From contig KQ965768.1 in assembly GCA_001574975.1 (NCBI GenBank), positions 302,548 through 366,342 on the forward strand: 63,795 bases of DNA. The letters are read 5' to 3'. Position 1 is the stretch's first letter; each line of letters starts with the position of its first letter. Below, piece by piece: positions 9,619-57,735 of this stretch. This DNA comes from Gonapodya prolifera JEL478. Its lineage: Eukaryota; Monoblepharomycota; Monoblepharidomycetes; Monoblepharidales; Gonapodyaceae. The notes under the pieces were generated by a model that saw only the letters and a program-made list of their open reading frames with translations, searched no databases and had not been told where the DNA came from. Both the position numbers and the translations under genes were made by a program.

Positions 9619-10898
9619 ATGGCCAAGTCCAAGTACGAATACGTCCGCGCCTTCGAGCTTCCCGACGCAATCCTTCCCTCCACCTTCATCTTGGTGCGCG
9701 TGGATGGCCGTAACTTCTCCACTTTCACAAAGAAGCACAACTTCTCAAAACCACTCGACTTTCGCGGCGTCGCGATCATGGAGCGCGCGGCGCAGACCGT
9801 GATGAAGGAGTTTTCGGGTGACATCGTATTGGCGTTCGGGCAGGTGGGGTCGGGCACCTCTTTCGTCGTGGTGTCACTCACTGTGGTGCATTATTTTTGT
9901 GTATGCACCCACGATTGAGGTTAGTCGGACGAATTCTCGTTCCTCCTCAAGAAATCGTCCAACCTGTACAATCGCCGCGCGTCCAAACTCGTCTCCTCCG
10001 TCGTGTCGCTCTTCACCTCGGCATACGTATTTTGGTGGGACAGCGTCTTGTCGCCAGTCACCAACGATGCTGCACCTGCGCGTGCTTCTGCTACTGTTTC
10101 TGTCCCTTCTATTATGATCCCCGTGACACCAAACGCCGCCTCGCCACGTCTCGACGTGACATCCTCTACCACGGTGGTACCCCCTTGGCCCTTGTATCCG
10201 CCTTCTTTTGACGGCCGGGCGGTGTGCTATCCCACGGAAAAAGAAGTCAAGGACTACTTTCGGTGGCGGCAAGTGGGTCATGTCTCGGGGGGGGGGGGGG
10301 GAGGCGAGACGGAACGAACGATGGGAAGCCGAATGAAGTGGAGTCGAGCCCCGCGAGCGCAGCGACCCCGCGGCGTAAGTGTGAAGCGCTGACCGAGGCT
10401 GTCAAGCGACGCGAGTGCGCTTCGAAGCGGAATACTCTTGCCAACGCAGCGAGCCCGAGGCATAACGGCGATTCATCTCCACTTCGCGTCCCATACTAAC
10501 ACCTTTCTCACCTCCACACCCATTCCAAGGCGGACACCCACATCAACTGCCTCTATAACACATGCTACCACCACCTCACATCACGCCCCGCCAACCCCGA
10601 ATTCCAACTCCCTTCCATGCCCACGTTCCTTCCCTCCCCTCCACGCCCCCTGACGCCCTCCGAAGCCGAAGTTCTCCTCTCACGGACGGACTCGTCAATG
10701 AAGAATGAGTTGTTGTTCAAGGGTTTCGGCGTCAACTACAACGCCCTGCCGCCGGCGGCGAGAAAGGGGTCGGTTCTGCGGTGGGGAAAAGTGGAGGACC
10801 AGAACGGCCGGATGAGGACGCAGGCTGTGGTGGAGTACGTTGATTTGATTAGTGAGGCGTTTTGGGAGGAAAGGGGCCTGTTACAGCAGCAGGTCTAA
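9619..10898 (+). CDS. THG1: tRNA(His) guanylyltransferase
   Basis: Thg1 adds G-1 to the 5' end of tRNA-His, the identity element for histidyl-tRNA synthetase. The start MAKSKYEYVRAFE is canonical. VRVDGRNFSTFTKKHNFSKP carries the first metal-binding Asp, and GDIVLAFGQ|SDEFSFLL the second, split by an intron (9844-9924). The next exon holds LYNRRASKLVSSVVSLFTSA, then a Ser/Ala/Pro/Thr-rich insertion of about 45 residues not usual in the family, then YPPSFDGRAV and YFRWRQ. After the long intron 10273-10529 come ADTHINCLYNTCYHHL and FKGFGVNYNALP-x-RKGS. Exons 9619-9843, 9925-10272 and 10530-10898 sum to 942 nt (313 codons plus stop), all phase 0. The usual HINN motif reads HINC here. It is otherwise intact and a confident call. 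Confidence 0.93.
10287..10480 (+). repeat. GC-rich intronic element, copy A (introner-like candidate)
   Basis: This fills most of the 257-nt second intron of THG1. It opens with 15 consecutive G (10287-10301) followed by GAGGCGAGA (10301-10309), then blocks of GAGC/CGAAGC-type words. It contains GCGCTGACCGAGGCTGT (10386-10402) and AGCGAGCCCGAGGC (10448-10461). The same three blocks occur in the same order on the minus strand at 57103-56907 inside a PEX6 intron, the last two exactly 62 nt apart in both copies. Both copies point the same way relative to host-gene transcription. The outer boundaries are not defined. Confidence 0.7.
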
Positions 10899-55500: not shown

Positions 55501-57735
55501 GGAGAATGTCTTACAAGCCTGGCAAGTCCATTGGTACGTCATGTTTTTGAAATTGAAATCCATTTCAAATCGCAAAACAGTAACTCACCGGTCTACATCT
55601 TCTGGAACATCGATGCCATACACTTTCACTTGTCTCTTCGTCTCTTCCTTCCCATTCATTCCGACACTAGAAGCAACGCACCAGTCCCCACTCAGGCAGT
55701 TCAGCTGAGTCAAATAACCCAAATTCACAAGAATGCGGCATTCTCCGTCCTCTGTTTTATCAGGTTGAGGTTGCAAAAGAGAGCGTGGATAGCGAGAAGA
55801 GAGTACCCTGGGCGCAAAAGTCACCGAGGATGACAAGACTTGAGCCAATTGATCGCTCCCAATTCCGGAAGTAGTCGACTCTGATGATTGGGCAGAGGTA
55901 TCCGAGGGGCTGTGTGGCAAGGGAAAGTGGAGATGAGCCTTGGAAAGGTGCTGTCGGTTCTGGTACGGAAGCTCGCGCGGGACAAGAGGATTTGGGGCTC
56001 GTCGGGGATACTGGAGAGTGGATTGTGAGATTTTGTTCGAGCCGCCGTTGGCCCTTCGTGCAGTGGTGTGAGTATGTGATGACGTGAACACCGACATGAT
56101 TATCTTTGTTGACCGGCCAACCACTCCCTGCATCACCGGCGAGCAGTTCAGAACGCGGAACTGAACCTTTGATGGCGCACGGGGGTGGTCACGAGTAGAG
56201 AGATGTTCTTCCGAAATACTCAGGAGGCATAGTTGTCGTAGAATAGTTGAAGAAGACCGTAAGTAGGTCGCAAAGGGCAACGAGTCTGGAACAATGATGC
56301 TGTTATTCGAACAGAGAGCAAGATTGCGACACGCTCATCTCTCACCATTTTGTGAAGCAAGCTCAAAAGCGTCCTTTGAGGTCGCTCCTAGAACAACTTC
56401 ATCGAGCTCTACGAGTGCTGTCGGCTGAATCCAGCCTTCCACGACAGGTCTCTGTGATGATACAGCTTGGAGAGAAAAGGGAGACGCTTCGTCGGGCGAG
56501 GGGAAAATATCCTCCAAAGCAAATCCGTTATCCAAAAGCCATTCATTGGCAAGATATACAATGGCGTCTGAAGACTGATTGTTTCCATCGGGGGACTGAC
56601 GCCGAACGACATGTGTCACCATTCGCCCGATAGCCGCTGGAGACATGGTGTTTTCTTCCTCGTCGTTCAAGAGTGATGGGGGTACCAAGGCACGATGCGC
56701 TCGCCGGTACGGAGCGGAGCCACCGTGTTCGGGGTGTTTCAGGTGAAGACACGCAGAGATCCTCTCCAACGCTGACGGAGCTGTGTGAAAGCAACGATGA
56801 GACAATACTGTTACACGAGGTTGGAAACCCATGCACACGGATTATTCGCCTCCGGCGGAGGAATATGCTCCGCGTGGGACAGTCGCCTCGATCGTATCGC
56901 ACCTAGGCCTCGGGTTCGCTCCGCGAGATGCTTCCGCTCCACACTGTATCGCTCGCCTCCGGCGCACAGCCTCGGTCAGCGCCTGGCGGCGCTTAGACCT
57001 CGGTGTCTTCGCTGCACTCGGACTTCTCGGACTTCCATGCTTCGCACTCCAGACCTCGCTTCGCGTCTCGCAACTCCGGCCTCTGGCCTCCGTTTCTCGC
57101 CTCGCCCCCGCCCCCCACCCACCCCCGAAAACAACGACCCCCGATAACGCTCACATAATTGCTGGGCCCGTCTTGTCCTTCCGTCATCCTTTCCCGGTCT
57201 CAGCTCTCCGGAAATCGACGGTGCAAACCTCGCTCCGGCATGGAGGAGCGTATCCCAAAGCGTTTCATTGACACCAATAGTGCCAGACGGGATCCCATCG
57301 CCTACTGAAGCTTGTGTAATCTTGACTGCAGTGAGACGGCGAACAAATGGTTGGCGAGGCTCTTCGGAGGATGAAGATGCAGATCCATTCCGAGCGTCCG
57401 AGTCCGGCGGGTGCGCGGAGCTTGGCTGTCTGCCAACCATCGGCGGTCCCATCGCAGGCAGCGACAATGGTGAAGTGTCGGGTCTGGATAGGGTTCCGAA
57501 TGGGCGTGGAAGGGTGGGCGAAATTGAGCCAATTGGATTTAGCCGGAGTCAACGGTGCCCCAAAAAATTCTGGTGGGTGTACGAGGCTGAAGACGGAATC
57601 AATGAAGTGCGCTCGAGGGATCTCGGAATCTGAGTTCGGTTTGGCTCCAACAAGGAAGGCAGTGAGGGAATACATCAACCCAACACGTGAGCGTCGATGT
57701 GCTATGTGTCGACCCTCAGCAAGACATTTCAACAT
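52592..57735 (-). CDS. PEX6: peroxisomal AAA ATPase Pex6
   Basis: Pex6 with Pex1 pulls ubiquitinated Pex5 off the peroxisome membrane. The second AAA domain is clear: [20 protein letters not shown], Walker [39 protein letters not shown], Walker [21 protein letters not shown], and [21 protein letters not shown] across an intron. The first AAA domain keeps a Walker A ([12 protein letters not shown]) but has LLTHVEA instead of an acidic Walker B, as usual in Pex6. N-domain exons (56780-55585 and 55478-55161) read [37 protein letters not shown] and [20 protein letters not shown]. The C-terminus is charged ([19 protein letters not shown]). The intron 57154-56781 (374 nt) holds element copy B. The first exon is uncertain: two overlapping frames (57735-57265 and 57467-57155) must be joined by a splice I could not place. 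Confidence 0.88.
56907..57122 (-). repeat. GC-rich intronic element, copy B (introner-like candidate)
   Basis: Read on the minus strand, the PEX6 sense strand, it opens with a G-rich run (57122 down to about 57104), then GAGGCGAGA (57103-57095), GCGCTGACCGAGGCTGT (56982-56966) and AGCGAACCCGAGGC (56920-56907). These match three blocks in THG1 intron copy A in order and orientation, with identical 62-nt spacing of the last two. The element lies wholly within intron 57154-56781. Its 3' limit beyond 56907 is unclear. Confidence 0.7.

What the first reader, a model, noticed from the sequence alone, without database searches (positions are those of the whole stretch)
10273..10529. Homologous GC-rich element shared by introns of two unrelated genes: introner candidate
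Seen: the THG1 intron 10273-10529 carries three sequence blocks (GAGGCGAGA; GCGCTGACCGAGGCTGT; AGCGAGCCCGAGGC) that recur in the same order in a PEX6 intron (57103-56907, minus strand). The second block is identical over 17 nt, the third matches at 13 of 14, and their spacing is 62 nt in both. Both copies begin with a G-run and lie in the sense orientation of the host gene. Coding flanks are unrelated. Known: introner elements in some fungi and algae create introns by inserting copies of one sequence, usually sense-oriented. Inference: this genome holds a family of such elements, possibly still spreading.
Basis: partly seen in the sequence, partly recalled or inferred. Interest (0 to 1): 0.87.

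Follow-up and report, generated by a model that had tools for sequence, protein, structure and literature searches.

The report
Intron-dwelling sense-oriented DNA hairpin repeat family
A short GC-rich repeat built of tiny hairpins has spread through introns of a swimming-spore fungus, mostly pointing the same way as the gene, and in the gene families that could be tested it entered introns that already existed instead of creating new ones.

Summary
The THG1 intron (10273-10529) and PEX6 intron (57154-56781, minus) carry copies of one GC-rich repeat family: a 30-mer of the shared module has 204 genome hits at up to 3 mismatches, reversed control 0. Dynein and fungal transcription-factor genes point to a flagellated fungus. 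Of 70 loci, 63 have a donor-like site just upstream in sense (loose motif; antisense 31 of 70, random 23%). Strict GTRAGT: 42 of 70 sense, 0 of 70 antisense, 5.5% random. Of 20 chosen junctions sent to Pfam, 18 lie inside a domain. The introner reading fails two tests: similarity stops 25-212 nt before the acceptor, and at three occupied positions (MFS, permease) 12 paralogues have plain 58-111 nt introns at the same place and phase. THG1 and PEX6 themselves were not testable. Seven of nine hairpin types named by eye follow the rule of ultra-stable DNA mini-hairpins (C-G-closed GNA or GNNA loops). Recent gene duplicates differ in the element's 5' half, so the family changed recently. Copying via transcription-exposed single-stranded DNA is inference; selection alone and RNA-mediated copying remain rivals.

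The parts
10273..10529 (+). THG1 spliceosomal intron carrying one element copy (GTGGGT donor, ACTAAC branch-like site, AAG acceptor, phase 0)
   Evidence: Splicing restores YFRWRQ|ADTHINCLYNTC; downstream exon matches THG1 structures
10287..10301 (+). G-run with which the element begins, 14 nt from the donor's first base
   Evidence: a G-run is seen at the start of most THG1-like copies printed
10307..10380 (+). THG1-type 5' module (T5)
   Evidence: nhmmer with a profile of 32 hits, 66.0 bits, E 1.9e-19
10369..10465 (+). shared mini-hairpin module (M): holds GCGCTGACCGAGGCTGT and AGCGAGCCCGAGGC
   Evidence: nhmmer 46.0 bits, E 1.9e-13
10481..10529 (+). 3' part of the THG1 intron (branch-like site, pyrimidines, acceptor), outside the shared sequence
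   Evidence: coverage by other loci ends at locus L001 position 1679, i.e. window 10465
56781..57154 (-). PEX6 spliceosomal intron (374 nt; donor GTGAGC at 57154, acceptor ACACAG ending at 56781) carrying a second element copy
   Evidence: open frame joins across it ([14 protein letters not shown])
56990..57099 (-). PEX6-type 5' module (P5)
   Evidence: nhmmer 98.3 bits, E 1.1e-29
56901..57002 (-). shared mini-hairpin module (M) of the PEX6 copy
   Evidence: nhmmer 70.9 bits, E 3.6e-21; 1-mismatch hit of the 30-mer at G000:C38:359500-359529
56836..56859 (-). weak further module fragment at the 3' end of the PEX6 array
   Evidence: nhmmer 13.2 bits, E 0.003

Best explanation
Shown: this is a family of short (about 90-570 nt), GC-rich repeats without coding capacity seen, in a flagellated fungus. 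A copy consists of a G-run, one of two 5' modules (T5 or P5) and a variable string of mini-hairpin modules. Most copies examined lie in spliceosomal introns, on the sense strand, starting within about 45 nt downstream of the 5' splice site. Where tested with usable paralogues the host intron was there first, as a plain 58-111 nt intron, and the repeat enlarged it (189-512 nt in 17 supported cases). Inferred: copies move through transcribed genes, as DNA. The G-run and mini-hairpins let the displaced non-template strand fold into nuclease-resistant hairpins during transcription. Repair synthesis on such exposed strands, switching templates between copies, inserts or exchanges array segments in the sense direction. 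Exonic insertions are purged, and in short introns only the gap between donor and branch site tolerates them. That would account for the sense bias, the genic location, the different 5' starts, the variable module number, and the different 5' halves in two recent gene duplicates.
For: Family: (204 hits of one 30-mer, 107+/97-, reversed control 0). Introns and orientation: loose donor within 60 nt upstream in sense in 22 of 29 THG1-like, 21 of 21 PEX6-like (19 by script plus L036 and L040 read) and 20 of 20 pattern-picked loci, against 23% (1297 of 5600) at random places; strict GTRAGT 42 of 70 sense, 0 of 70 antisense, 5.5% (382 of 7000) at random. Of 20 joined exon pairs given to Pfam, 18 have a domain spanning the junction. 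Pre-existing introns: MFS position GRA|V has element-free introns in L071-L075, L079, L080 (64-111 nt) beside L040 (277 nt) and L081 (230 nt) with element; MFS position GR|A has them in L076-L078 (67-89 nt) beside L034; permease position IG|IFGY has them in L085, L086 (58 nt) beside L070, L084, L087. Recent change: L070 and L084 (71 of 71 residues identical before the intron) share the intron's first 13 nt and, with 2 differences, its last 27; the element's 5' half is T5 in one and P5 in the other. Hairpin grammar: 100 of 147 triloops are GNA and 131 of 147 are closed by C-G; at one module 65 of 86 tetraloops are GNNA, only 19 of the 65 GNRA, and 28 of 46 triloops are GNA. GNA/GNNA loops on G-C stems make exceptionally stable DNA hairpins (PMC4686876, passages read).
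Against: The copying mechanism is unobserved: no empty/filled pair recent enough to read a target-site duplication was found. With the loose donor motif the antisense side also exceeds random (31 of 70 against 23%); purine-rich complements of pyrimidine tracts may explain this, untested. Seven of 29 THG1-like loci lack a clear donor; L003 and L019 sit beside frames read on the other strand (by eye) and may be intergenic or antisense. L070 and L084 could also be two separate insertions into one intron. Whole-element folding as DNA is not better than shuffles (z +0.62 for the THG1 copy, -1.24 for a module typed by eye, -0.81 for its reverse complement). Loop counts are not independent, since copies are related, and two of nine hairpin types break the rule. 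Stem changes show only a weak strand asymmetry (G.U 120 against A.C 73; unpaired C>T 7.5%, G>A 6.0%), so retained RNA function is neither shown nor excluded. Selection against antisense copies could also give the sense bias. Two pairs among the 12 plain paralogues (L071/L072, L085/L086) are nearly identical, so they are fewer than 12 independent cases.
Confidence: 0.48

Rival explanations
1. Ordinary non-autonomous transposon (MITE- or SINE-like) that inserts anywhere; selection leaves copies mainly in the tolerant gap of short introns and removes antisense copies because they bring harmful splice signals.
For: Host introns are short (58-111 nt in the paralogues), so only the region just after the donor tolerates insertions; up to 7 of 29 THG1-like copies may lie outside sense introns.
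Against: Intergenic copies should be neutral and common in both orientations, yet 20 of 20 pattern-picked and 21 of 21 PEX6-like copies follow a sense donor. No Rfam match in 7 loci and no tRNA in the window; no terminal inverted repeat seen by eye. A coding partner was not looked for.
Confidence: 0.27
2. RNA-mediated copying: the element moves as part of intron RNA (for example reverse splicing or RNA-templated repair) and is converted into other introns.
For: Sense, genic location; fungal introners were read this way because they lack TSDs and TIRs (PMC9860276 section 8).
Against: Reverse splicing would move a whole intron with its splice sites; here the acceptor part is not shared. GNNA loops with pyrimidine at the third position (46 of 65) do not follow the RNA GNRA rule.
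Confidence: 0.15
3. True introners: each insertion created the intron, and copies later lost their 3' homology.
For: Sense orientation and closeness to the donor. P450 L016: of 7 other matches 6 run through the site (two of these with stops inside) and one, C8:263618, ends just at it and was not examined. Adaptin L056: all 3 other matches run through, one with a stop inside. DEAD-box L060: mixed.
Against: Plain introns at the same position and phase in paralogues of three occupied positions. Copies are still 70-94% alike in aligned parts while most of the paralogous introns show no likeness by eye beyond their ends, so the introns look older than the copies. Acceptor-side sequence is not shared.
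Confidence: 0.08

Closest known systems
Introners / introner-like elements (Micromonas, Dothideomycetes and others; PMC9860276, PMC4457414)
   Same: Many similar sequences in introns of unrelated genes, sense-oriented, strongly genic; no TSD or TIR seen by eye here
   Different: Similarity does not reach the 3' splice site; occupied introns have plain counterparts in paralogues; 5' halves differ between recent duplicates; in the passages read, Pezizomycotina are the only fungi named (supplementary tables not read)
Repetitive hairpin-forming / double-hairpin elements of mitochondrial DNA (sponges, fungi; PMC2800124 passages)
   Same: Short, GC-rich in some hosts, strings of small hairpins, tandem multi-repeat motifs, scattered copies
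   Different: Those are mitochondrial, in intergenic regions and genes; these are nuclear, in spliceosomal introns and stranded by gene direction
MITEs inserted in introns (general knowledge)
   Same: Short non-autonomous repeats that lengthen introns
   Different: No terminal inverted repeats noticed, orientation follows the gene, few candidates for intergenic copies in the samples
Extraordinarily stable DNA mini-hairpins d(GCGAAGC), GNA/GNNA loops (PMC4686876 passages)
   Same: Loop and closing-pair rule as in seven of nine hairpin types of the element
   Different: Known there as a physical and engineering motif; the one search that touched this (9 papers listed) showed no genomic repeat family built from it

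Membership tests
Introner | Many introns of unrelated genes share similar sequence | tested here: met
[quoted passage not shown]
   0-43 nt from the donor (median 9), but 25-212 nt (median 72) from the acceptor in 17 Pfam-supported introns; acceptor parts not shared
Introner | Insertion created the intron (empty site is an uninterrupted exon) | tested here: not met
   12 paralogues (two near-identical pairs among them) with plain 58-111 nt introns at three occupied positions; L083 lacks the intron, L082 not resolved. Inconclusive for P450, adaptin and DEAD-box hosts; not testable for THG1 and PEX6
Introner | Sense orientation relative to the gene | tested here: met
   strict donors 42 of 70 sense, 0 of 70 antisense; 7 of 29 THG1-like loci unclear
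MITE | Terminal inverted repeats and fixed-length TSD | tested here: inconclusive
   Ends vary from copy to copy and none was seen by eye; no program was run for it and no recent empty site was available
SINE | tRNA, 5S or 7SL-derived head with Pol III promoter | tested here: inconclusive
   No Rfam match up to E 0.1 in 7 loci; no tRNA in the window; promoter boxes not scanned
Mitochondrial hairpin elements | Located in mitochondrial DNA | tested here: not met
   Contigs up to 1.57 Mb and spliced nuclear genes
Ultra-stable DNA mini-hairpins | GNA or GNNA loop on a G-C stem | tested here: met
   seven of nine types named by eye, exceptions GGCC-AGA-GGCC and GTCC..GGAC with an 11-nt loop; stability itself not measured

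The most novel reading that the evidence does not exclude
A mobile element whose replicating form is single-stranded DNA exposed by transcription: arrays of GNA/GNNA mini-hairpins on the non-template strand copy themselves, without any encoded enzyme, only into transcribed DNA and only in the sense direction, so that introns become the natural home of the family.
Probability: 0.18. Interest if true: 0.88.

Novelty: new variant of a known kind. Interest (0 to 1): 0.62.

Why it matters
It separates two things usually seen together: sense-biased, intron-confined spread, and intron creation. The broad survey of Gozashti et al. was designed to exclude most repeats that lie inside older introns, so such families could go unreported. 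Introns here grow by stranded insertion next to the donor, giving a clean system to ask whether strand bias comes from how an element copies itself or from selection on splicing. The mini-hairpin grammar gives a testable physical hypothesis for a DNA-level, transcription-dependent copying route.

Tried and rejected
Codon-usage models trained on window and locus ORFs discriminated poorly in this GC-rich genome and were used only as a minor term in choosing splice sites. Automatic models gave none for L001, L003, L009, L019, L021, L036 and L068, and were wrong by eye for L040, L058 and the L033 donor.

RNA-level selection on stems: tested by G.U against A.C counts. Searches had wrong pair indices and one search showed two more; only one search is used. 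At its looser setting G.U 120, A.C 73; at the stricter one 68 and 34. Double changes at the looser setting: 30 seen, 22.8 expected if independent, 20 of the 30 Watson-Crick. The result is weak.

Folding energy, Rfam, tRNA and tandem-repeat scans gave nothing useful.

Paralogue tests on P450, adaptin and DEAD-box hosts were too remote to tell gain from loss. An exon-flanking duplication at L010 was considered as a long target duplication but stands alone.

For the last of these I lowered the best explanation from 0.50 to 0.48 and the novel case from 0.20 to 0.18.

Full report
What was claimed and what is there. The THG1 intron is 10273-10529: removing it joins YFRWRQ to ADTHINCLYNTC, and the downstream exon matches THG1 structures. 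In the window alone the shared 17-mer has a BLAST E of 0.004; the genome decides the matter.

Family size. The window lies in a 47.56-Mb, 207-contig genome. The THG1 element (10287-10480) has 44 matches, 41 at E 2.6e-12 or better, from 40 scored of 100 first-look candidates; the PEX6 element has 61 matches from 40 scored of 324. One 30-mer of the shared module occurs 204 times with up to 3 mismatches, 107 on one strand and 97 on the other; its reversed control occurs 0 times. These are lower bounds. By profile scan at E 0.01 the window holds just these two copies; the flanks of the fetched loci hold further copies in 9 loci (L006, L009, L013, L024, L028, L033, L038, L049, L068).

Host. Twenty-five exon matches of the dynein AAA_6 domain fall at about 12 places, and 45 matches of the fungal transcription-factor domain PF04082 were found. 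A fungus with many dynein heavy chains is, by general knowledge, a zoosporic one. The species is not known to me.

Anatomy. A full copy starts with a G-run, continues with a T5 module (GAGACGGAACGAACGAGGCGAAGCCGAGTGAAGTGGAGTCGAGCC..., THG1 type) or a P5 module (GGGTCGAGCAACGGAGGCC...GCGAGGTCTGGAGTGCGAAGCAC..., PEX6 type), and then a variable string of mini-hairpin modules. Many copies begin inside the P5 module, so 5' starts differ. In the element regions of 70 loci I counted 230 perfect hairpins with stems of at least 4 bp, against a mean of 151 in base-shuffled sequence; 147 have triloops, of which 100 are GNA and 131 are closed by C-G; the reverse-complement type TNC occurs once; 27 of 50 tetraloops are GNNA, 8 of those GNRA. 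In the AGCGC...GCGCT module, allowing imperfect arms, 65 of 86 tetraloops are GNNA with positions 2 and 3 variable, only 19 of those 65 are GNRA, and 28 of 46 triloops are GNA. Of nine hairpin types that I named by eye, seven obey c(GNA)g or c(GNNA)g; the exceptions are GGCC-AGA-GGCC and GTCC...GGAC with an 11-nt loop (sequences). PMC4686876 (passages read) describes GNA or GNNA loops with at least two G-C pairs as extraordinarily stable DNA mini-hairpins. Counts within a type are not independent, since copies are related, and global folding energy is not unusual.

Location and strand. I compared three sets: 29 THG1-like loci (L001-L030 without L015, a near-duplicate of L014; the 30 best of 40 places), 21 PEX6-like loci (PEX6 and L031-L050; the 21 best of 40), and 20 loci picked by hand from the first 40 listed places of the 30-mer, before their surroundings were seen (L051-L070). 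Eight others of those 40 places were already in the first two sets or their flanks, one of them L019; 12 were not fetched. A donor-like site within 60 nt upstream of the element on its own strand is present in 22 of 29, 21 of 21 and 20 of 20 (the script gave 19 of 21; the donors of L036 and L040 were hidden because the shared sequence begins upstream of them). The same loose motif gives 31 of 70 on the antisense side (16, 7 and 8) and 23% at random places. With the strict motif GTRAGT the figures are 42 of 70 sense, 0 of 70 antisense, and 5.5% at random. The seven THG1-like loci without a clear donor are L003, L008, L009, L011, L017, L019 and L026; L003 and L019 lie beside frames read on the other strand (by eye). 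Of the 9 loci with extra flank copies, 7 point like the main copy; the two that do not (L009, L038) follow donors of frames on their own strand; a donor was seen by eye before 7 of the 9 copies, not before those of L006 and L068. Of 20 spliced junctions given to Pfam, chosen because the proteins looked familiar, 18 lie within a matched domain: L006, L016, L020, L029-L031, L034, L042, L044, L051, L053, L055, L056, L058, L060, L066, L067, L070 (L016 and L058 below the curated cut-off); L038's domain lies only downstream, and L064 (upstream part only) matched nothing. In 17 of these introns (all but L058, whose model was wrong) the length is 189-512 nt (median 300), the element median 195, the donor gap 0-43 (median 9), the acceptor gap 25-212 (median 72) and the residual without the element 28-239 (median 89).

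The decisive test. L034 and L040 are MFS transporters. A protein search gave paralogues, of which I fetched 13. At the L040 position (GRA|V, phase 1), L071, L072, L073, L074, L075, L079 and L080 have plain introns of 64-111 nt; L040 has 277 nt and L081 230 nt, both with an element; L083 has no intron; L082 was not resolved at the site. At the L034 position (GR|A, phase 0), L076, L077 and L078 have plain introns of 67-89 nt. For the permease of L070 (IG|IFGY), L085 and L086 have plain 58-nt introns, while L084 and L087 carry elements. In total 12 paralogues, with two near-identical pairs among them (L071/L072, L085/L086), have plain introns at three occupied positions. Most of these introns show, by eye, no likeness to the element introns beyond their ends, while element copies are still 70-94% alike in aligned parts; so the introns look older than the insertions. 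Hosts with only remote paralogues do not decide: P450 L016 (6 of 7 other matches run through the site, two of them with stops inside; the seventh ends just at it and was not examined), adaptin L056 (3 of 3 run through), DEAD-box L060 (mixed).

Recent change. L070 and L084 are recent duplicates (71 of 71 residues identical before the intron). They share the intron's first 13 nt, its last 27 nt with 2 differences, and a similar 3' half of the element, but L070 has the T5 and L084 the P5 5' half. Either one copy exchanged the part between the G-run and the shared module after the duplication, or two elements entered the same intron; the equal junctions favour exchange. L084 also keeps 30 nt that L070 lacks next to a repeated TGTGTTGACG; with them, the flanks without the element would make an ordinary intron of about 66 nt (my reading).

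How it works. Shown: insertion into older introns where testable, sense direction, donor-proximal start, recent change of modules. Inferred: copying as DNA within transcribed genes. The freedom of the GNNA third position argues for DNA hairpins over RNA; the strand rule argues for the non-template strand. Selection alone could produce the donor-proximal position, because host introns are short, and perhaps the strand bias, but explains the scarcity of intergenic copies in the samples poorly. Retained RNA function is not supported: stem changes show little strand asymmetry.

Known work. I read the abstract and outline of PMC4457414; passages, section 4 part 1 of 2 and section 8 of PMC9860276; passages of PMC8476143, PMC2800124 and PMC4686876. 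Gozashti et al. require similarity up to near both splice boundaries, which excludes most repeats inside older introns. Full-text searches for introner alone (30 of 67 papers listed), with basidiomycete, chytrid or Gonapodya, for Gonapodya prolifera with intron (15 of 23 listed), for intron gain with zoosporic fungi, and two broader ones listed no paper whose title or abstract start describes such a family; they cover open-licence papers only.

Noticed in passing
L010 (G000:C74:173562-176676), around the element: About 90-100 nt of the upstream exon (GAGATGTGGAGCACC...GTCGGTGGG) recurs in similar form (by eye) right after the element, as if insertion had duplicated a long flank; the host looks TatD-like (recalled).
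   Followed up: partly
L070 (C44) and L084 (C32): Recently duplicated permease genes whose element has different 5' halves (T5 against P5) between nearly identical flanks.
   Followed up: yes
L040 and L081; L070/L084 and L087: The same old intron position has been occupied by elements more than once in paralogues.
   Followed up: partly
L014 (C23 end) and L015 (C22 end): Near-identical element loci close to contig ends: subtelomeric duplication or redundant assembly.
   Followed up: no
L011 (G000:C65:83950-86350): The G-run before the element is very long (dozens of G), suggesting slippage at the element's 5' end.
   Followed up: no
L060 intron (G000:C62): A second repeat (GAAGAGTGGGCAGAG...GAGATATTCTCTTGTGG) occurs twice inside the element intron.
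   Followed up: no
G000: About 12 places with dynein heavy-chain AAA_6 matches and 45 Fungal_trans matches: a flagellated fungus.
   Followed up: partly
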